From Phycisphaera sp. (GTDB lineage Bacteria > Planctomycetota > Phycisphaerae > Phycisphaerales > UBA1924), in contig CP098402.1 in assembly GCA_025916675.1 (NCBI GenBank), forward strand, positions 119,205-183,204: DNA of 64,000 nt, written 5' to 3'. A program made the position numbers and the translations under genes. This document shows, in pieces, positions 11,962-21,038 of this stretch. The notes beneath the pieces were generated by a model, which did not search any database, was not told where the DNA came from, and was given only the letters and a program-made list of their open reading frames with translations. How positions within the stretch are numbered: position 1 is the stretch's first letter; each line of letters begins with the position of its first letter.

Positions 11962-13812
11962 ATGCCCGGCATGCCTCCCGTCCCCCATGACAAGCTGCCC
12001 GAGATCCGCGCCCTCGACCCGCTGGTCGTCAACCAGATCGCCGCGGGCGAGGTCGTCGAGCGGCCGGCCTCGGTGGTCAAGGAACTGGTCGAGAACGCGC
12101 TCGACGCCGGGGCGACGAGCGTGCGCGTCGAGCTGGAGGCCGGTGGTATCGAGCTGGTCCGCGTGGCCGACGACGGCTGCGGCATGTCGCCCGAGCAGCT
12201 GCCCGTGGCCGTCGCCCCGCACGCGACGAGCAAGATTACCTCGCCCGATGACCTCGACGCCGTCTCGACGATGGGCTTCCGGGGCGAGGCGCTGGCGAGC
12301 ATTGCCAGTGTGAGCCGGCTGCGGATCCGATCGCGCACGCGTGGCGCGAGCGAGGCGACCGAGCTGGTCGTCGAGGGAGCGAGCGTGCAAGGGCCATCGC
12401 CCGCCAGCGGAGCGCCCGGCACGGTCATCGAGGTGCGGAATCTCTTCTTCAACACGCCCGCTCGGCGGAAGTTCCTCAGAACGGCCCAGACCGAGAAGCA
12501 GCGCTGCGTTGCGGCGGTCAAGGGCCTCGCACTCGCGCGACCGGCGATCGGCTTCACGCTGGTGTGCGATGGCCACACCACGCTCGACCTGCCCGCCGAC
12601 CAGAGCGCGCCGCAGCGCGTGCGTTCCATTCTGGGCGAGGACCTCGCCGACGCGATGATCGAGGCCAAGGGAACCGCAGCCGAGACGTACAACGTGAACC
12701 TCTGGGGCCTGGTCGGCCGGCCCCACGCGGCGCGCGGGAACGCCAAGGGCCAGTGGATCGTGCTGAACGGCCGCGTCATCCGCGACGCGAGCATCGCCCA
12801 CGCGCTGCGCGAGGCGTATCGCGGCCTGATCGAGCCGGGCAAGCACCCCGTCGCCGTGCTGCTGATCGACGTCGACCCCAGCATGGTCGACGTGAACGTG
12901 CATCCCGCGAAAGCAGAAGTCCGCTTTCGGGACTCGTCGGCCATCCACGCCGCGGTGCACGGCTCGGTGCGCGATGCGCTCGCGGGCGAGGATTTGACTG
13001 CTTCCCTTGAAGAGGTCAATCCGCGCAGCGTTCGCCCCTGGCAGCCGTTCGTACCCGCCGATGGGGCGATCTTTAAGGGCCCGCAAGCCACCGAGATGAC
13101 GCAGGCCGCGCGCGAGGCGGCGGATCGGTTCACCGAGGCCGAGGCGCACGCCGTCCTGAATCGCCCCGAACCGCAACCCACGACGCAGATCGAACATAAG
13201 AATCCCGAGCCCACCGGGATCGACCGCGTGCCCGACGGCCCGTGGATGCGAAGGGCGATGCAGATCCGCGACAGCTATCTCGTCGCCCACGACGACGACG
13301 GCGTGGTCATCATCGACCAGCACGCCCTGCACGAGCGGGTCATGTTCGAGGCGTTGCGGTCTCGCGTGGCCAGCCAGGGAACGTTAGAAAGCCAGCGCCT
13401 GCTCACGTCCGCGATGGTGGGCGTGGCCGACGCGCCCGAGAAGCTCGAAGCGCTGGCTTCGATCTTACAAACGCTTGGCATCGACGCCACCGCCGCCGGC
13501 CCCACGCGCGTGGCGGTGCACTCGTTCCCCAGCCTGCTGTTCAGCCGCGGCGTCGACCCGGCCGACTTCATGGGCGATTTGTTGGAGAAGGACGACCTCC
13601 CGAAAGACCAGGAAGACGCGCTGCGCGAGGTCCTGGACATGATGGCCTGCAAGGCCGCCGTCAAGGCCGGCGACGCCCTGAGCGACCAGGAATTGTCGGC
13701 GCTCTTAGAACTCCGCGAGAAGGTCGAGCGCAGCGCGAGCTGCCCGCACGGCCGGCCCACGTCGGTGCGGCTGACGATGCGGGATCTCGAGAAGATGTTC
13801 GGACGCCGCTGA
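11962..13812 (+). CDS. mutL: DNA mismatch repair protein MutL (endonuclease-type)
   Basis: A 616-residue MutL. The N-terminal GHKL ATPase has the N-box KELVENALDAG (Asn45), DDGCGM (about 70-75), TMGFRGEALASI, and NVHPAKAEVRF at the end of the transducer domain. The C-terminal domain carries the metal-dependent nicking endonuclease signature DQHALHERVMFE (from Asp452), ACKAAVKAGD and CPHGRPT, as in organisms without MutH. A Pro/Glu-rich linker joins the halves. The ATG at 11962 is about 30 bp from the divergent phosphatase gene. Confidence 0.97.
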   Translation: MPGMPPVPHDKLPEIRALDPLVVNQIAAGEVVERPASVVKELVENALDAGATSVRVELEAGGIELVRVADDGCGMSPEQLPVAVAPHATSKITSPDDLDAVSTMGFRGEALASIASVSRLRIRSRTRGASEATELVVEGASVQGPSPASGAPGTVIEVRNLFFNTPARRKFLRTAQTEKQRCVAAVKGLALARPAIGFTLVCDGHTTLDLPADQSAPQRVRSILGEDLADAMIEAKGTAAETYNVNLWGLVGRPHAARGNAKGQWIVLNGRVIRDASIAHALREAYRGLIEPGKHPVAVLLIDVDPSMVDVNVHPAKAEVRFRDSSAIHAAVHGSVRDALAGEDLTASLEEVNPRSVRPWQPFVPADGAIFKGPQATEMTQAAREAADRFTEAEAHAVLNRPEPQPTTQIEHKNPEPTGIDRVPDGPWMRRAMQIRDSYLVAHDDDGVVIIDQHALHERVMFEALRSRVASQGTLESQRLLTSAMVGVADAPEKLEALASILQTLGIDATAAGPTRVAVHSFPSLLFSRGVDPADFMGDLLEKDDLPKDQEDALREVLDMMACKAAVKAGDALSDQELSALLELREKVERSASCPHGRPTSVRLTMRDLEKMFGRR

Positions 13813-13846
13813 CGAGGCCCTGGCGCGAGCCTGGGCTTTCTATCTT
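13813..13846 (+). terminator. Imperfect hairpin after mutL
   Basis: GCCCTGGC-GCGA-GCCTGGGC followed by TTTCTAT directly after the mutL stop. One mismatch lies in the stem. A very similar hairpin (GCCCCGGC / GCCCGGGC then TCTTCTC) follows the lipoprotein gene ending at 38621. Confidence 0.45.
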
Positions 13847-14410
13847 GAACACAGAGGTCCCAGAGGGCGCAGAGTGAGGAACTGGCGCGTTGGGGGGACC
13901 GCTCCTACCGAGCCGGTTGCGTGAGCAGCCGGACCTTCTTTCTTGAACGCGAAGGTCGCGAAGGCCGCGAAGGTCGCGAAGGGCTCGAAGCGGAGGGAAG
14001 GGCCGGAGGGGATCACCACAGAGGCGCGGCCGCTCCCGCGGCCCGGCCGTCAGGCGGCAAGCGAGCAACGCGAGCGCTCAAGCACACCACAACGCCGCAG
14101 CATCCGCCGAGCGAGCCTTCGAGCGAGAGCGCATGCGGGAGGCGCGGCCGCTGAGCGGCCCGGGCGGTAGCCCGCAAGCGAGCCACGCGAGCGCTCAAGA
14201 ACACCCCCGTTGGTCGAGCGCTGGCGCGGCCGTCTTCGGCCCCGCCGAGCGGCGAAGAGCCAAGAACGCCCGAATCCCACAACGTCCAAGCACCCGTCGC
14301 CCATGAAAGACTTATCTGGACCCGGGCCACAAACTTATCTGGACCATCGCCGCGCCCAACCCGCCCCCACGGCCTGGCAACGGGGTTTTTCGGGCCCGCC
14401 GGCGGCATCA

Positions 14411-14620
14411 TCGAGTTTTTCGCACCGGTGCGATGGGGCATCGCAAGCCTTCGGCGGGGCATCGCACGCGTTCGATCGGGCATCGCCCGGGCTCGATGGC
14501 CCGTCGCACGCGTCCGATGGCCCATTGCATGCGTCCGATGGGGCACCGCACTGGCTCGATGGGCGATGGCACGGCGTCGGTGGCCCATCGCGGGCCTTGG
14601 GCCGGCCGTCGCACGCGTGG
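14411..14620. repeat. Degenerate 21-bp tandem repeat array, about 9-10 units
   Basis: Units begin GATGG(G/C)(G/C)CA and keep TCGCA at the same offset, with exact 21-bp spacing (unit starts 14432, 14453, 14474, 14495, 14516, 14537, 14558, 14579, 14600). An older weak unit is at 14411. Read on the + strand they give heptapeptides such as DGASQAF, GGASHAF, DGPSHAS. Differences between units include CCG/CCA, CAC/CAT and GCC/GCG, synonymous in that frame. Confidence 0.8.
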
Positions 14621-14688
14621 TTGGGGAGGGCGAGGGCCGGCGGCGGGGCTTATTCCCGCTCCCAGCGGGCCACTCCGTGGGGGGTTGG

Positions 14689-14718
14689 GTCGAGGTCTTC
14701 CGAGACTGAGGGGGTCTT
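14689..14718. repeat. Left arm of a perfect 30-bp inverted repeat
   Basis: The 30 bases starting GTCGAGGTCTTCCGAGACTG are found exactly, reverse-complemented, at 19065-19094. A second shared block, CCCGCTCCCAGCGGG, lies outside this arm at 14655-14669 and matches 19101-19115 in inverted orientation. The two copies bracket the ATPase-methyltransferase locus. Confidence 0.85.
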
Positions 14719-14850
14719 GGTTTCCTCCCCCGCCCCCGGCGGGGGAGGTGGCCGACGCGAAGCGAGGCCGGAGGGGGGCTTGCCTCCCTCTCCCCGTCCC
14801 CGGGGAGAGGGCTGGGGTGAGGGGGTCCTGCTTTTCCACTACCCTCCCCC

Positions 14851-14985
14851 ATGCAACTCCACCGCAAACCCGACCCCAACGACAAGATCGGCTGCTCGGG
14901 CTGCATTCAAATGATGCTGCTGGCCGCCGTGGTGATGGGCGTGGGAAGCGTGGTGGTGTTCGTGCTGGCGGCTGCGGTCTTCTGA
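14851..14985 (+). CDS. Possible 44-residue single-span membrane protein
   Basis: ATG at 14851 to TGA at 14983-14985. The peptide has a polar N-terminus MQLHRKPDPNDKIGCSGCIQ and a hydrophobic span MMLLAAVVMGVGSVVVFVL, with a CSGC pair before the membrane. The upstream CCTCCCCC is not a good ribosome binding site. It sits about 200 bp before the GHKL ATPase, inside the inverted-repeat bracket. The clean topology argues for a gene; its size and weak start argue for caution. Confidence 0.4.
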   Translation: MQLHRKPDPNDKIGCSGCIQMMLLAAVVMGVGSVVVFVLAAAVF

Positions 14986-15183
14986 ATTGGATTCCGCTTC
15001 GCGGGCTCCGACGAACCCCCGCGGTGACGCGGGGGGGCAGGGCAATGCTACAGGGCGAGGAGTATTTCTCGATCCCACCCGCATACGCTGGCGATGGTCG
15101 GAGCCCGCCATACGTCCTCCAACCCCTGTGTCGACCACGAACGGACCACTGCCAAACTCTCCCGAGAACGGACTGACACACCT

Positions 15184-17739
15184 ATGGCGCAAGAACCAGC
15201 CTTTGCCACCGCCGGGACGAAGACGTCAGACATTGACGTACGGTTAAGCTACAAGATCGTTTCGCTGTTCTCCGAGGGCTTGTACGCCAGCCCGAATAAA
15301 GCGGTGGAAGAACTAGTCGCCAACTCCTTTGACGCTGGTGCGCTACGGGTCGCCGTTTTTATGCCTGCGGACCTCCATGAGCAGGGTGCCACGATCGGCG
15401 TTCTCGACGATGGGGAGGGGATGGACGACGAAGGCCTCAAACGACATTGGCTCATTGGCATTAGCGACAAACGAGACCTCTCCAAGCTACCTCAGGGTCG
15501 CCAGCAAATCGGCAAATTTGGTATCGGAAAGCTCGCCACATACGTCCTAGCTTCCCGCTATTCACACATCAGCAAGAAGGACGGTAAGTACTACTCAACT
15601 TCACTGGATTACAGCAAGATCGACAAGCGCGTTGAAGATGGTGTTGAACCTAAAACGCCGGTAAGGATAGCCCTACGAGAGCTGTCAGTTGCTGAAGCAC
15701 AGGCCGCGCTCAAGCCGTGGACAAATACGGCGTCGTTCAAGAAGACCGGTCTGAAGCTGTTTGGAAAGGCGTCGTCAAAATCTTGGACCTTCGCGATTCT
15801 CTCGGATCTGAAGGACAAGGTCCACGAGATTCGCCCAGGCGTGCTTGAGTGGGTGTTGCGAACCGCTTTGCCGCTCCGTGATGATTTTAGCATCTACTTG
15901 AATGGCAACAAACTGACTGCGAGCAAGGCAGGTAAAGGGAGGATTAAGCGATGGGTACTGGGGAAAGACATCACCAAGTTGCCAAAGCCTGCGCCTGACA
16001 CCGTGGAGGCCGAGTTCGATGAAGACAAGCCCGCAGGTGCCATTGATCGCTATGCCCTCGTGTATGGGCCGTTGGGTCGGATATGGGGATATGCGGAAGC
16101 GTACAAAGACATACTCGGTGGCAAATCAGACGACTTAGGGCGAAGTAACGGCTTCTTCGTCTACGTCCTCGGCCGGCTAATAAATGTCACCGATGGCCAC
16201 TTTGGCATCAAACCAGACGAACTGCGACATGGCACCTTTGGTCGCATGCGTGTGGTCGTGCATATGGATGGCTTGGATGCATTCCTGCAGTCTGATCGGG
16301 AAAAAATTCGAGAAGGACCAGTTCTTGAAGACGCTCGAAACATACTTCGAGCAATCTTCAATCATGTCCGCAAGGCAGTGGATTCTCATGACGAGAAGGA
16401 AGACCCCAGCACCAAGCTATCCCGTAAACTAGCTGGCAGCCCGGCGAGCATATTACGCCGGCCCATTGTTGAGATCGTACGAGCGGCTCTCGAAGGCAAT
16501 ATAATGTCGCGGTACGTAGCTGTGCCTGCGGCAACTACTGAGGCTGAGCGAAACACGCTAGTCGAGCGATTGGAAGAGCGGGCTAGTTCCAGCGATGGGT
16601 TTGTCGCAGGCATCGATTTTTCGTATGACGCAACGACCGATGATGGGATAGCCGTGTATGACGCTGTCACGGGACGGCTGAGAATCAATGGCCTGCATCC
16701 ATTTGTAGGGGCGTACTTCGACGAGTTTACAAGTAAGACCAGCGGGCTTCCGCTTGAGGTCTTTGCTTTGTCGGAGGTATTGCTGGAGGCTCAGCTATAT
16801 CAAACAGGCTTTGATCAGTATCAAATTGACGACGTTATGTCCGCCCGAGACCAACTCCTCCGGTTCGTAGCCCAAGATTCCGGCCGACGCACAGCTTTGA
16901 CCGTCGCGAATAGTCTCCGCAATGCTAAAAACGACGTTAACAGGCTTGAAATTGAGGTAGTCGAAGCGTTTCGCAGTCTCGGGTTCGAGGCAACGCGAGT
17001 TGGGGGCAATGGTAAGCCCGACGGGGTGGCTAAGGCGCCGCTTGCGGCGGATGGCAGCAATCAACCAAGGCGATACGCCGTGACGCTGGAGGCCAAGAGC
17101 AAGCAAAAGGAAGGTGCCCGACTAAAGACGAGAGCGTTCAGTCCCTCCGCAATCGCGAGGCATCGTGACGAGGCCCAGTGCGAACATGCGATGGTCGTAG
17201 CTCCTGCGTTTAGTCACACTCCTGGCAACGAAAGTGCCCTGGCCAAGGAAATCAAGGCCGACAGGGAGAACTCTGCAGCGAAGGGTGAGCCACGGACTAT
17301 AACGGCGATTCACATCGAAGATCTTGCGCGCTTGGTCCAACTTCGCCCAGTTAAACGCCTCGGCTTGGCGCGTATCCGTGAGATGCTCCAGACGTGCAGC
17401 CTACCCGAGGAGTGCAAAGCGTGGGTCGATAGCGTGGAGGAGGAACCCGTGGAGATACCGCCGTATGCCCAGGTTGTCAACGCGATCCACGGGTTACAGA
17501 AGGACTACGAGATGGCGGCAGTTGAGTACGGCGCTCTACGAGTTGCGCTGGGAAAGGACAAGCCGTCGTACAAGGTGCGTACCAACGATGAGCTTATTGA
17601 ACTTTGCAAGGGAATGGCAACGATGACAGGCGGAGAGATAAGCGCTAACCAGCGGACCGTCGAGCTCAATCAGAGCCCGGAAAATGTTTTGGCTGCCATT
17701 GAGTCGGCTACGAAGGCTCATATTGTCGATAAAGACTGA
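15184..17739 (+). CDS. GHKL ATPase with PD-(D/E)XK-like segment, predicted defence nuclease
   Basis: An 851-residue protein. Residues about 20-130 form a GHKL (Hsp90/MutL/MORC-like) ATPase: N-box EELVANSFDAGA (Asn47), DDGEGM at 75-80, and KFGIGKLATYV from 111. A long middle region follows, including the conserved-looking segment FGIKPDELRHGTFGRM. Near residues 585-645 comes a restriction-nuclease-like stretch: GKPDGVA with Asp613, then YAVTLEAKSK with Glu636 and Lys638, matching a D...ExK core. About 210 further residues are unassigned. GC content is visibly lower than in neighbours, with TTA, ATA and AGA codons. A methyltransferase gene starts 44 bp downstream. GHL ATPases fused to nuclease domains and paired with methylases are known from restriction-modification loci. 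Target and activity here are inference. The ATG at 15184 is preferred over the frame's earlier ATG at 15094. Confidence 0.8.
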   Translation: MAQEPAFATAGTKTSDIDVRLSYKIVSLFSEGLYASPNKAVEELVANSFDAGALRVAVFMPADLHEQGATIGVLDDGEGMDDEGLKRHWLIGISDKRDLSKLPQGRQQIGKFGIGKLATYVLASRYSHISKKDGKYYSTSLDYSKIDKRVEDGVEPKTPVRIALRELSVAEAQAALKPWTNTASFKKTGLKLFGKASSKSWTFAILSDLKDKVHEIRPGVLEWVLRTALPLRDDFSIYLNGNKLTASKAGKGRIKRWVLGKDITKLPKPAPDTVEAEFDEDKPAGAIDRYALVYGPLGRIWGYAEAYKDILGGKSDDLGRSNGFFVYVLGRLINVTDGHFGIKPDELRHGTFGRMRVVVHMDGLDAFLQSDREKIREGPVLEDARNILRAIFNHVRKAVDSHDEKEDPSTKLSRKLAGSPASILRRPIVEIVRAALEGNIMSRYVAVPAATTEAERNTLVERLEERASSSDGFVAGIDFSYDATTDDGIAVYDAVTGRLRINGLHPFVGAYFDEFTSKTSGLPLEVFALSEVLLEAQLYQTGFDQYQIDDVMSARDQLLRFVAQDSGRRTALTVANSLRNAKNDVNRLEIEVVEAFRSLGFEATRVGGNGKPDGVAKAPLAADGSNQPRRYAVTLEAKSKQKEGARLKTRAFSPSAIARHRDEAQCEHAMVVAPAFSHTPGNESALAKEIKADRENSAAKGEPRTITAIHIEDLARLVQLRPVKRLGLARIREMLQTCSLPEECKAWVDSVEEEPVEIPPYAQVVNAIHGLQKDYEMAAVEYGALRVALGKDKPSYKVRTNDELIELCKGMATMTGGEISANQRTVELNQSPENVLAAIESATKAHIVDKD

Positions 17740-17783
17740 TCTTAGAGCCAAGCATCACGTACGCTTAATGAGCCAATTATTGT

Positions 17784-19022
17784 ATGTTGAAGTCACACAA
17801 TCAGACCATCTTCGAGACACTTGGGCGAAACCCAATCCATCCCTTTCCCGCGCGAATGGCTCCGGGTATCGCCCTTGATGCGCTGGGCGAGAGCCAAACT
17901 CCGCTCCGGGTGCTTGATCCTATGGCGGGGTCGGGCACGGTTCTGGCCGTCGCGCGATCGAAGGGGCATAGGGCAATCGGTATGGACCTTGACCCCCTTG
18001 CCGTCTTGCTATCTGGGGTTTGGACTCGAACGGTTGATCCGCACCGCGTGAACCAGAAGGCGACGGAGGTCTTGGCTCGCGCGAAGCACGCCTGTCGCAC
18101 GCTATCCTCCGGTTCGGCCTACCCAACAGGCAGCGATAGCGAGACCCGCAAGTTTATCCGCTATTGGTTCGACGACTACGCGCGCGTCCAGCTAGCGGCC
18201 CTCTCTATTGCAATCAGTCGTGTCCGTGATGAGACGACTCGTGACGTCCTCTGGTGCGGCTTCTCGCGCCTCATCATTACCAAGAGTGCGGGCGCTTCGC
18301 TGGCGATGGATCTGTCGCATAGTCGGCCTCACAAAAAGTTTGCGACAGCACCGGTCAAACCCTTCAACCGGTTCATCGCAGCAGTCGACGCCGTAATCTC
18401 AAACTGCCCGAAGTCTGGTTCTGGCCGAATTGGACCGAGGGCCGTTGTCAAGCACGGCGACGCACGGAAATTACAGATTGAGTCAAAGTCGATCGATCTG
18501 GTATTGACATCGCCGCCGTATCTCAACGCCATTGACTACATGCGATGCAGCAAGTTCTCACTTGTATGGATGGGCTACAACGTTGACGAGTTGCGAATGA
18601 TTCGCGGTGATAGTGTTGGCGCTGAAGCATCATCCCAGGTAGCTATGGCATCGCCGTGGGTTCAGTCGCTCATCATGCAGTTGGGACTAAAGTCAAAGCT
18701 CTCAAGCCGCGATTCGGGACTGCTGTCACGCTACGTCCTCGACATGGGCGGCGCTTTGTCCGAGGTATCTCGCGTATTAAGAGCGGACGGGCGCGCGGTG
18801 TATGTGGTCGGCGACTCGACCGTGCGGGGGACATTCGTACGCAACTCGGCCATCGTGGAAGCCGTGGCGCAAATGCACGGGCTCGTCCTTGACGACAAGA
18901 AGTCTCGGGCCTTGCCTGCCAACCGCCGGTATCTGCCACCACCTAAGAAGGGCGCGGATTCCGCGATCGAGGGGCGGATGCGGCGCGAAGTGGTCTTGGC
19001 ATTCTCGAAGCCCATCGCGTGA
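17784..19022 (+). CDS. SAM-dependent DNA methyltransferase (SPPY type)
   Basis: A 412-residue amino-group DNA methylase. The order is a motif X-like IHPFPARMAP, motif I LDPMAGSGTVLAVARSKG (about 43-60), an acidic motif II in GMDLDP, and the catalytic motif IV LVLTSPPYLNAIDY (about residue 242). A conserved segment KFSLVWMGY follows. The SPPY form and motif order fit N6-adenine or N4-cytosine enzymes. No separate specificity subunit gene is nearby. It follows the GHKL ATPase gene on the same strand, shares its lower GC, and would protect host DNA if that protein is the restriction partner. Confidence 0.87.
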   Translation: MLKSHNQTIFETLGRNPIHPFPARMAPGIALDALGESQTPLRVLDPMAGSGTVLAVARSKGHRAIGMDLDPLAVLLSGVWTRTVDPHRVNQKATEVLARAKHACRTLSSGSAYPTGSDSETRKFIRYWFDDYARVQLAALSIAISRVRDETTRDVLWCGFSRLIITKSAGASLAMDLSHSRPHKKFATAPVKPFNRFIAAVDAVISNCPKSGSGRIGPRAVVKHGDARKLQIESKSIDLVLTSPPYLNAIDYMRCSKFSLVWMGYNVDELRMIRGDSVGAEASSQVAMASPWVQSLIMQLGLKSKLSSRDSGLLSRYVLDMGGALSEVSRVLRADGRAVYVVGDSTVRGTFVRNSAIVEAVAQMHGLVLDDKKSRALPANRRYLPPPKKGADSAIEGRMRREVVLAFSKPIA

Positions 19023-19361
19023 TGCATTGCGTCCAACCCCCGCGACCGCTCCCTGACTAATCTGAAGACCCCCTCAGTCTCGGAAGACCTCGACAGCTCC
19101 CCCGCTGGGAGCGGGGGAGCGGGTCAGACGCCCCCGCCCTCACCCATCCTCCTCCGCCTCCTCCGGCGGAATCGCCCGCACATCCGAACCCGCCGCAAAG
19201 TTTCTTTTTCAAAAAAATCTTGCCTCCGACTGAAGTCGCCCCCCGATCCCCCCGATGCAATCCTCGACAGCCGCCGCTTGCCCGCCGGAAGGTCCCGCGG
19301 GCGCGGCGGGCACCGAGGGCGTCGCGATTCGTGCTGGCGTCCACCGATCAGGGACGATCCA
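19023..19361. other. Intergenic region after the defence-like locus
   Basis: Holds the right arm of the 30-bp inverted repeat, a GC-rich palindromic block (19101-19135 and around 19150-19170), and an A/T-rich TTTCTTTTTCAAAAAAATCTT stretch near 19200-19220. No gene is supported; open frames here are compositional. Confidence 0.6.
19065..19094. repeat. Right arm of the perfect 30-bp inverted repeat
   Basis: Exact reverse complement of 14689-14718. It begins 42 bp after the methyltransferase stop. The second shared 15-bp block lies outward at 19101-19115. Confidence 0.85.
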
Positions 19362-20057
19362 ATGCCCAGAAAACCGATCAAGGACGCCGAACTCCTCCAG
19401 TACGCCGCCAACCTCTTCGCCGTGTGGAGCGGCGGGCAGGGCACGCCGCCCGACATCGGCCTGAGCGCCGAGCAGGTTGCCAGCCTGGGCACGAGCCTCA
19501 CGAGTGCTCAGGACGCCAAGACCAGCCAGACGACCAGCGCCAGCGCCGCGAAAGCGGCGAGCACCGGCAAGCGCAACGCCTTCGCCGGCCTGCGCACCAA
19601 GCTGGGCGGGCTCATCGACATCGTCGAGGGCTACGCCAAGGAGAGCGGCGACCCGGACGTGTACCAGCGGGCCCACATCGACCCGCCCGCCCCGCCGACG
19701 CCGCGCAGCGACGCGCCCCAGCCCGAGGACGTGAGCACCCGCGTGCGCACCGACGGCACCATCGAGGTCGCCTTCACCGTCACCACCGGCGGCGGCGCGA
19801 CCTTCGACGTGCAGCGGCAGACCGTGCTGCTGAGCGGCGAGTTCGGCTCGTGGACGCCGTTGGCCACCATCGGCAAGAAGAGCTTCATCGACGAGGCCGT
19901 GCCGGTGGGCCTGCGGCAGGTCCTCTACCGCGTGCGCACGACGCTGAGCAACGGTGTGGCCAGCGAGTGGAGCGAGCCCTCGGTGACCAACTTCGGCAAC
20001 CAGGGCAGCGCGGGCGGGCCCATGGCCGCCGGGGCGATCGAGACCGAGGCCGCCTGA
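19362..20057 (+). CDS. Hypothetical protein with a C-terminal beta-sandwich-like region
   Basis: 231 residues with no signal peptide. The N-terminal half is helical and Ala/Ser/Thr/Lys-rich (MPRKPIKDAELLQYAANLFA ... SQTTSASAAKAA). After a Pro-rich linker, residues about 125-220 look like a fibronectin-III-type fold (VSTRVRTDGTIEVAFTV ... QVLYRVRTTLSNGVASEWSE). The ATG at 19362 gives the coherent N-terminus; an earlier in-frame start would add a basic, repeat-like stretch. Followed by a strong hairpin. Function unknown. Confidence 0.65.
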   Translation: MPRKPIKDAELLQYAANLFAVWSGGQGTPPDIGLSAEQVASLGTSLTSAQDAKTSQTTSASAAKAASTGKRNAFAGLRTKLGGLIDIVEGYAKESGDPDVYQRAHIDPPAPPTPRSDAPQPEDVSTRVRTDGTIEVAFTVTTGGGATFDVQRQTVLLSGEFGSWTPLATIGKKSFIDEAVPVGLRQVLYRVRTTLSNGVASEWSEPSVTNFGNQGSAGGPMAAGAIETEAA

Positions 20058-20080
20058 GCCCCCAACACGATTGGTGTGCC

Positions 20081-20118
20081 GAACGCCCGCGCGGGGCCCG
20101 ATGCCCGCGCGGGCGTTC
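20081..20118. terminator. Perfect 15-bp stem hairpin
   Basis: GAACGCCCGCGCGGG and its exact complement, with an 8-base loop, after the gene ending at 20057. There is no T-run on either side, so termination would depend on other factors or the hairpin only protects the mRNA end. Confidence 0.55.
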
Positions 20119-20234
20119 TCGCGCGCTCGCGAGAAACTCATTGGGATGAACGACGCTTCACGCGGCAAAGCCGGGAAACCGTCGGAGCTATCATGCGTGT
20201 TCGTCCGGAACGCACCCACCCCCAGTGAGCCACC

Positions 20235-21038
20235 ATGAAACTCTCGATCGCCCTCGTGCAACTGAACGTCATCCCCAACGACCCGCCGGCGAATCTTGCC
20301 AATATGGCCGAGTTCGTCGCGAAGGCGGCCAAGGCCGGCGCCCAATTGGTTGTCTTCCCCGAAGACGCCGTCACCGGGCCGCTCGAGGGCCAGACGCTGT
20401 ACGTGCAGCACGCTCCGGAGTATCTCGCGTATTTCCAGGCGTTGGCGGTCAAGCACCAGATCGACATCGTGCCCGGCTCGTGGTCGGTCACCGAGGCGGG
20501 CGCGGTCGGGCCGGTGCTCTGCAACGCGGCGCACTACATCAACGCCGATGGCTCGGTCGCGGGGGTGTACAGGAAGGTGAACCTGTGGGAAACCGAGAAG
20601 GCGACGCTCGCCCCGGGGCTGGCCGTCTCGGTGTTCCCGACGGCCCACGGCATGGTGGGCCTGACGATCTGCTGGGACATCGCGTTCCCCGAGATGTTCA
20701 CCGAGATGTCGCGGTTGGGGGCCGAGCTCGTCGTGTCGCCAACATACTGGTCGCTGTCTCGGCGGGCGGAACAGAGCCGGGGCGTGGCAAAAGATGAAAT
20801 CGAACTCATAGATTCGCTGTGTGTGGCGAGGTCGTTCGAGAACGACATAGTCTTCGCGTACTGCAACGCGGCCGGCTTGGTCGGAGACGAAAAGGCCGAC
20901 GGCGTGCTGAGCGGTCGGAGCCAGGTCACGCACCCGCACGAGAAGGTGCTGTGCAAGGCCAAGGGGAACACCGAAGAGATGCTCACGGCGTCCTTCACCC
21001 ATACCCGGGCCACCGCCGCGATGCCGCAGGGCGGGTGA
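20235..21038 (+). CDS. Carbon-nitrogen hydrolase (nitrilase superfamily)
   Basis: A 267-residue amidase-type enzyme with the complete nitrilase catalytic set: Glu43 in VVFPEDAV, Lys114 in VYRKVNLW, and Cys146 in LTICWDIAFPE. The reaction would be hydrolysis of an amide or related C-N bond, but the substrate cannot be predicted. The ATG is at 20235. It is followed after 42 bp by a DUF892 gene on the same strand. Confidence 0.88.
   Translation: MKLSIALVQLNVIPNDPPANLANMAEFVAKAAKAGAQLVVFPEDAVTGPLEGQTLYVQHAPEYLAYFQALAVKHQIDIVPGSWSVTEAGAVGPVLCNAAHYINADGSVAGVYRKVNLWETEKATLAPGLAVSVFPTAHGMVGLTICWDIAFPEMFTEMSRLGAELVVSPTYWSLSRRAEQSRGVAKDEIELIDSLCVARSFENDIVFAYCNAAGLVGDEKADGVLSGRSQVTHPHEKVLCKAKGNTEEMLTASFTHTRATAAMPQGG

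What the first reader, a model, noticed from the sequence alone, without database searches (positions are those of the whole stretch)
15184..19022. ATPase-nuclease-like protein paired with a DNA methyltransferase: candidate defence module
One 851-residue protein carries a GHKL ATPase (Asn47, DDGEGM 75-80, GIGK 113-116) and, 500 residues later, a D613...E636-x-K638 nuclease-like core. It is followed after 44 bp by an SPPY DNA methylase. GHL/MORC-like ATPases in restriction-modification loci are described, but this layout with a large middle domain, a 210-residue tail and no specificity subunit or helicase is not one I can match to a named system. Visibly lower GC and different codon use support recent transfer.
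Basis: partly seen in the sequence, partly recalled or inferred. Interest (0 to 1): 0.85.

Follow-up and report, generated by a model that had tools for sequence, protein, structure and literature searches.

The report
ATP-clamp restriction enzyme with DNA methylase
Two neighbouring bacterial genes appear to form an antivirus restriction system whose cutting enzyme joins a MORC/Hsp90-like ATP-driven clamp to a FokI-like DNA-cutting domain, with a companion methylase that probably marks the cell's own DNA as safe.

Summary
Window 15184-17739 encodes an 851-aa GHKL ATPase; 44 bp downstream, 17784-19022 encodes a 412-aa SPPY DNA methyltransferase (MT). Both have foreign composition. Predicted structures put residues 570-748 on the FokI cleavage domain (Z 15.1-15.7) and, more weakly, 758-841 on a winged helix; the ATPase half resembles MORC2/MORC3 and Hsp90. 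In 12 aligned sequences only four of 427 C-terminal columns are always acidic; three are the nuclease core E589, D613, E636 (K638 invariant). I found 18 homologous places in planctomycetes, an alphaproteobacterial bin, actinobacteria, archaea and predicted viral contigs. Of 15 intact ones, 12 have an MT as immediate neighbour, one a Vsr gene plus C5 MT, one an MT four genes away, one none found; of three cut by contig ends, one has Vsr plus C5 MT and two show no MT on the side left. The MTs are of different classes, and one MT has been exchanged (AU p = 0.0006). Best reading: a restriction-modification system whose FokI-like nuclease is gated by a GHKL clamp, a new variant of a known kind (paraMORC3, BbrUII/HgiDII, VcSduA), sharing their ATPase type but apparently not their nuclease. 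ATP gating, cleavage and the source of specificity are inferred.

The parts
15184..17739 (+). 851-aa GHKL ATPase / FokI-like nuclease / winged-helix protein, the predicted restriction subunit
   Evidence: ORF; start supported by L011, L012, L013; GC3 0.60
15232..15753 (+). GHKL ATP-binding domain, about residues 17-190 (N47; DDGEGM 75-80; glycine-rich motif G110-K116)
   Evidence: Pfam HATPase_c_3 E 1.5e-21 at 36-161; invariant motif residues; Hsp90 N-domain 3k60 Z 15.6 over 170 residues
15766..16308 (+). S5/transducer-like part, about residues 195-375
   Evidence: MORC3 5ix2 Z 15.2 over 290 residues (model 20-405), MORC2 5ofa Z 14.9 over 300 residues (model 21-412); domain edges approximate
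16318..16923 (+). middle region, residues 379-580, with invariant N502 and H505 and nearly invariant R555-D556; function unknown
   Evidence: secondary structure; conservation
16891..17427 (+). PD-(D/E)XK nuclease of FokI type, residues 570-748
   Evidence: FokI 2fok Z 15.1 and 15.7; Pfam only weak and below cut-off
16948..16950 (+). E589, invariant acidic residue of the E-D-(D/E)xK core
   Evidence: 12 of 12
17020..17022 (+). D613 of the nuclease core
   Evidence: D in 11 and E in 1 of 12
17089..17097 (+). E636-A637-K638 of the nuclease core
   Evidence: E in 10 and D in 2 of 12; A and K in 12 of 12
17161..17163 (+). H660, invariant histidine after the core
   Evidence: 12 of 12
17455..17706 (+). 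C-terminal winged helix, residues 758-841 (possible DNA-binding part)
   Evidence: ORC, YceH and Cdt1 winged helices, best Z 8.0 over 82 residues; middling score, common fold
17784..19022 (+). 412-aa DNA methyltransferase, motif order X (IHPFPAR) - I - IV (alpha-like)
   Evidence: Pfam N6_N4_Mtase 1.6e-8; PADLOC MTase_II 1.7e-29
17916..17939 (+). MT motif I DPMAGSGT, residues 45-52
18510..18521 (+). MT motif IV SPPY, residues 243-246

Best explanation
It is a compact two-gene restriction-modification system. The MT marks host DNA. The 851-aa protein is the restriction enzyme. ATP binding is expected to close its GHKL/S5 halves into a dimeric clamp around DNA, as in MORC2, MutL and Hsp90-type proteins. 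The closed clamp then brings two C-terminal FokI-like nuclease domains together to cut DNA that lacks the mark; the winged helix helps hold DNA. Shown here: the domains (by profile and predicted structure), the conserved catalytic residues, the repeated pairing with methylases of different classes, exchange of one methylase, and a patchy spread across phyla and on a plasmid and predicted viral contigs. Inferred: ATP-gated dimerisation, double-strand cleavage, protection by methylation, and antiviral function. Open: whether the ATPase-nuclease reads the site itself (type II-like) or borrows the MT for it (type III-like).
For: GHKL motif residues are invariant in nine sequences, and the ATPase half matches MORC and Hsp90 structures. 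FokI cleavage domain: Z 15.1-15.7, rmsd 2.5-2.7 over 153-154 residues from two models; after the related N.BspD6I, HindIII and R.BspD6I2 (13.8-14.7) the next row is 9.3. Catalytic E-(D/E)-(E/D)AK in 12 of 12 sequences, the only always-acidic columns apart from D556. MT as immediate neighbour in 12 of 15 intact places (window, L011-L014, L032-L034, L036, L038, L039, L072); in L040 (intact) and L073 (cut by a contig end) a Vsr gene and a C5 MT stand beside the gene. The MT is downstream in 11 of the 12 and upstream, with overlapping stop and start, in L036. MT class varies: alpha-like in most, beta-like N6_N4_Mtase in L038, C5 in L040 and L073. L012's MT has been replaced. Only 7 PF01555 matches occur in the 3.6-Mb host genome, so chance neighbours would be rare. 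Composition is foreign. Relatives lie on a haloarchaeal plasmid and on IMG/VR viral contigs, some with phage-type neighbour genes.
Against: One intact homologue (L074, 27% identity) has no MT detectable with nine MT queries within 7.2 kb upstream or 6.4 kb downstream, and in L027 the MT is four genes away. L035 and L041, cut by contig ends, show no MT on the side that remains. The models rest on 7-8 sequences (pLDDT 73.3 and 78.6; pTM 0.49 and 0.65). No significant sequence match to FokI or Mrr was found: in nine C-terminal halves Mrr_cat appears in four and FokI_cleav_dom in two, all below Pfam's cut-off and beside unrelated families of similar E-value, and two halves have no match; one more Mrr_cat match is in L074, also below cut-off. 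A profile search of PDB sequences found no nuclease. No dimer was modelled, no ATPase or cleavage measured, and no target site is known.
Confidence: 0.75

Rival explanations
1. GHKL-Shedu type effector: the ATPase-nuclease is a stand-alone antiphage nuclease that senses infection (DNA ends or structure) rather than missing methylation, and the MT is of secondary importance, as in VcSduA, where ATPase and nuclease residues are both needed and no methylase is mentioned in the passages read.
For: VcSduA has the same overall order, GHKL then PD-(D/E)xK, and is antiphage by experiment (PMC12137116 passages). L074 lacks a detectable MT in the fetched flanks.
Against: An MT is the immediate neighbour in 12 of 15 intact places, and a Vsr plus C5 MT pair is beside two more of the 18. 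The nuclease is FokI-like by structure, with no DUF4263 match listed at E up to 10 in nine C-terminal halves (HMMER's filters hide most matches above 0.1).
Confidence: 0.12
2. Type III-like division of labour, a sub-case of the best explanation: the MT recognises the site for both activities, and the GHKL-FokI protein is a nonspecific clamp-nuclease that docks on the MT, in place of the usual helicase-nuclease.
For: In L012 the MT has been replaced: 42-46% identity to the MTs of five core members compared, against 67% (window) and 74% (L011) for its ATPase-nuclease; AU test p = 0.0006. The ATPase-nuclease shows no matching hypervariable stretch except its last residues. The same kind of ATPase-nuclease goes with alpha-like, beta-like and C5 MTs.
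Against: The replaced MT may read the same site: the HSRPH segment is identical in nine of nine alpha-like MTs aligned, L012 included. The MT tree has long branches (L014, L039) that the AU test shares. C5 MTs rarely act as specificity subunits (general knowledge). One exchange event only.
Confidence: 0.3
3. DNA repair or housekeeping role linked to the upstream mutL gene.
For: mutL lies 1.4 kb upstream on the same strand.
Against: mutL was found in six of six same-genus genomes read, while the homologue search matched none of those six. The interval after mutL, read in three of them, differs in size and ORFs. The paired MT in homologues points elsewhere.
Confidence: 0.03

Closest known systems
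paraMORC3 GHKL proteins (Iyer, Abhiman and Aravind 2008, PMC2292703; parts 1-3 of 4 read)
   Same: GHKL + S5 module followed by a C-terminal restriction-endonuclease-fold domain with E-D-ExK; patchy, laterally mobile distribution; restriction-modification context for the wider group
   Different: The paper reports RecB-family hits for that nuclease and a subset of stand-alone genes; here the nuclease is FokI-like by structure, a winged helix follows, and an MT is usually adjacent
VcSduA, GHKL-Shedu of Vibrio cholerae (PMC12137116; passages)
   Same: N-terminal GHKL ATPase, C-terminal PD-(D/E)xK nuclease, proposed clamp-like dimer; experimentally antiphage
   Different: Nuclease is DUF4263 (Shedu); no methylase partner in the passages read
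BbrUII/HgiDII family restriction enzymes (NCBIfam NF050001)
   Same: GHKL part is homologous: hmmscan 1.3e-17 for the window, reaching profile position 370 in L038; hhalign 98.4% over residues 17-247
   Different: C-terminal halves do not align (hhalign probability 0.2%, against a profile of only two sequences); M.HgiDII is a C5 methylase (PMC5867850 passages)
FokI and related type IIS enzymes (N.BspD6I, R.BspD6I2), HindIII
   Same: Cleavage-domain fold: Z 15.7, 14.7, 13.8 and 14.1
   Different: FokI has no ATPase and its recognition domain precedes the cleavage domain (general knowledge)
Type III restriction-modification
   Same: Two genes, an MT and an ATPase-nuclease (general knowledge)
   Different: No Helicase_C match in or beside the pair; the ATPase is GHKL

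Membership tests
paraMORC3 | GHKL + S5 ATPase module | tested here: met
   Pfam HATPase_c_3 1.5e-21; MORC3/MORC2 matches spanning model residues 20-412
paraMORC3 | C-terminal RE-fold domain with E-D-ExK | tested here: met
   E589, D613, E636-x-K638; FokI fold
paraMORC3 | nuclease related in sequence to the RecB/DUF4263 members | tested here: inconclusive
   No such match listed at E up to 10 in nine C-terminal halves; no paraMORC3 reference sequence was compared directly
BbrUII/HgiDII (NF050001) | score above the curated cut-off of 550 bits | tested here: not met
   63.6 bits, residues 32-155 only
BbrUII/HgiDII (NF050001) | homologous C-terminal half | tested here: not met
   hhalign probability 0.2% against two members, a shallow profile; best NF050001 stretches in five relatives end by profile position 370 of 659
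Shedu | DUF4263 nuclease domain (Pfam) | tested here: not met
   No DUF4263 match listed at E up to 1 for the whole protein or up to 10 for nine C-terminal halves; filters hide most matches above 0.1, and no Shedu structure was compared on purpose
MORC family proper | GhXhhpXXRhl motif in S5 (PMC2292703) | tested here: not met
   GFFVYVLGRLI in the window; the polar position is V or I in 9 of 9 rows of A1
PD-(D/E)XK nuclease, FokI type | fold plus catalytic acids and lysine | tested here: met
   Z 15.1-15.7; conserved residues; the exact residue pairing with FokI was not printed
Restriction-modification system | nuclease gene paired with a DNA MT gene | tested here: met
   Immediate neighbour in 12 of 15 intact places; Vsr plus C5 MT beside 2 more of all 18
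Restriction-modification system | MT protects the same site that the nuclease cuts | not testable with these tools
   needs biochemistry or methylome data

The most novel reading that the evidence does not exclude
A helicase-free analogue of type III restriction: a MORC-like ATP clamp carrying FokI-type nuclease domains takes its target from whichever methylase it is paired with, so that the methylase can be exchanged (alpha-like, beta-like, C5) and the clamp-nuclease re-aimed without changing itself.
Probability: 0.25. Interest if true: 0.85.

Novelty: new variant of a known kind. Interest (0 to 1): 0.62.

Why it matters
Eukaryotic MORC proteins have been proposed to descend from GHKL ATPases of bacterial restriction systems (PMC2292703), yet how the bacterial ones use ATP on DNA is little tested. 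Here the ATPase would have a built-in readout, DNA cutting, so clamp closing, DNA entrapment and methylation sensing could be measured directly. FokI domains cut only as dimers (general knowledge), so an ATP-dimerised clamp would be a natural switch for a FokI-type cutter. If the methylase supplies the target, the pair could be re-aimed by exchanging one gene.

Tried and rejected
Tried without result. Phage records and a single-sequence scan of viral contigs gave no homologue; a C-terminal profile scan of viral contigs gave only two places already known. Rfam found nothing over its gathering scores in 13000-21000. A PDB sequence search with the C-terminal profile found only weak unrelated matches. 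The viral fold library gave low-coverage matches, three of its first ten rows named restriction endonuclease. Literature searches for a FokI-like GHKL enzyme or a described GHKL-nuclease-methylase pair of this kind listed none that I recognised beyond those cited; I read titles and abstract starts of the listings, parts 1-3 of one paper and passages of five more. The library holds open-licence papers only, and the Shedu classification paper was not held. Passages of PMC8011034, PMC13092281 and PMC7824862 described no such pair.

Considered and rejected. (1) Link to mutL. (2) Membership of BbrUII/HgiDII, Shedu or MORC proper: see Membership tests. (3) A mobile unit bounded by the 30-bp inverted repeat at 14689-14718 / 19065-19094: a third near-copy lies at 2175018, and a 261-bp stretch around the left copy has 15 matches in the genome, so I do not claim it. 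(4) Deriving the target site from the methylase class: no tool offers it.

Rows and the pairing count. 18 distinct places: 15 intact and 3 cut by a contig end (L035, L041, L073). L035 and L041 show none on the side left. Copies of one contig under several locus ids were counted once. Shorter or weaker GHKL matches (L004-L010, L015-L026, L049-L053) were taken as other GHKL families and not counted. The group tested was chosen from the identity table, before the trees were built.

Caution on distribution: the Rhodospirillales record (L011) is a metagenome bin and may be mis-binned.
Full report
What is there. The two ORFs are real and as described. The start at 15184 is supported by close relatives. 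Third-position GC is 0.60 and 0.68 against 0.88-0.96 in four neighbouring genes, so the pair is compositionally foreign. The neighbours are mutL upstream and, downstream, a gene without a Pfam match, a carbon-nitrogen hydrolase, DUF892, TatD and a transglutaminase. mutL was found in six of six same-genus genomes; the interval after it was read in three of them and varies. The homologue search matched none of the six.

The ATPase half. HATPase_c_3 matches at 1.5e-21. Foldseek ranks MORC2 with DNA first for the full-length model, with TRAP1 and MORC3 close behind. VIA-align gives MORC3 Z 15.2 over 290 residues and MORC2 Z 14.9 over 300, spanning model residues 20-412; Hsp90 N-domains score the same over fewer residues. 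The defining MORC motif is nearly but not fully present, so I call this MORC-like, not MORC.

The nuclease half. A second model, of residues 425-851 from eight sequences, reached pLDDT 78.6 and pTM 0.65. Its best structural matches are FokI (Z 15.7, 154 residues, 2.7 A), N.BspD6I, HindIII and R.BspD6I2, then a drop to 9.3. The full-length model gives FokI at residues 570-748 on its own (Z 15.1). Sequence evidence alone is weak: below-cut-off Mrr_cat matches in four and FokI_cleav_dom in two of nine C-terminal halves, beside unrelated families of similar E-value, and none in two; Mrr_cat again in L074. Across 12 sequences down to 20% identity, four of 427 columns are always acidic (D556, E589, D613, E636); three of them and the invariant K638 are the expected catalytic set. 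D613 is E in L039, and E636 is D in L038 and L039, exchanges that a PD-(D/E)XK site allows. Residues 758-841 match winged helices at Z up to 8.0, a middling score for a common fold. N502 and H505 are also invariant and unexplained.

The pairing. Strong homologues were found in 18 distinct places, the window included. Three are cut by a contig end. Of the 15 intact ones, an MT is the immediate neighbour in 12: window, L011, L012, L013, L014, L032, L033, L034, L036, L038, L039, L072. In L040 a Vsr endonuclease gene and a C5-cytosine MT stand beside the gene. In L027, a haloarchaeal plasmid, a DNA MT lies four genes away. In L074 none was detected within 7.2 kb upstream and 6.4 kb downstream. Of the three cut ones, L073 has Vsr and a C5 MT on the side left, L035 and L041 have no MT detected there. 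The 12 immediate neighbours are not one narrow family: alpha-like MTs in most, distant ones in L014 and L036, a beta-like one in L038. That repeated pairing with different methylases is the best evidence that methylation is functionally tied to the nuclease.

Exchange. In the ATPase-nuclease tree the window, L011, L012 and L013 form a supported clade (99/100). L012's MT does not join the MTs of the other three (AU p = 0.0006) and is 42-46% identical to the MTs of five core members compared. The MT tree has long branches, which the test shares. No stretch of the ATPase-nuclease is correspondingly divergent apart from its last residues. Either the new MT reads the same site (the HSRPH segment is shared), or the MT decides the site.

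Distribution. Strong matches: 5 of 392 genomes of the window's phylum, its own included (E up to 1e-15); 3 of 101 close relatives, again including its own (G000, G076, G091; eight more matched weakly over one part); 1 of 398 in the phylum of L011, the seed itself; 3 of 296 in the phylum of a Streptomyces genome. Also a Micrarchaeota bin and other metagenome bins, one of 72,556 plasmids and four viral contigs; none of 50,697 phage records. It is rare and patchy.

Mechanism. By analogy with GHKL clamps, ATP binding should dimerise the N-terminal domains around DNA; FokI domains need dimerisation to cut (general knowledge). The simplest joint reading is an ATP-gated clamp that cuts unmethylated DNA. 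The ATPase-to-nuclease coupling, the cut, and protection by methylation are inference.

Place among known systems. Iyer and colleagues predicted in 2008 that GHKL ATPases work in restriction systems, including a family with a C-terminal RE-fold domain. VcSduA shows such a protein, with a Shedu nuclease, to be antiphage. BbrUII/HgiDII share our ATPase module but the C-terminal halves do not align (shallow profile). No listed Pfam, PADLOC, NCBIfam or PHROGs match covers the whole protein. Hence: a new variant of a known kind.

Noticed in passing
window 14689-14718 and 19065-19094: A perfect 30-bp inverted repeat (39 bp at 90%) flanks the module; one further near-copy in the genome, while a 261-bp stretch around the left copy has 15 matches in the genome.
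   Followed up: partly
interval downstream of mutL in G001, G004, G005 (L055, L058, L059): The interval between mutL and the conserved downstream genes differs in size and ORFs within the genus (2.6, 6.9, 2.7 kb); G001 carries a lower-GC ORF whose start looks by eye like a HTH regulator.
   Followed up: partly
window 16687-16698 (residues N502, H505): Invariant N-x-x-H in 12 of 12 sequences within the middle region, far in sequence from the ATPase and nuclease motifs; no function known.
   Followed up: no
L013 9308-9362: The Phycisphaeraceae copy is split by an apparent frameshift near residue 436; decay or assembly error.
   Followed up: no
L008 / L053 (G021): A different GHKL protein with a weakly similar MT immediately upstream (overlapping start), so GHKL-methylase pairing may extend to other GHKL families.
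   Followed up: no
L049 (G070): A BbrUII/HgiDII family member above the curated cut-off (702.6 bits) in the same taxonomic order, a useful comparator.
   Followed up: partly
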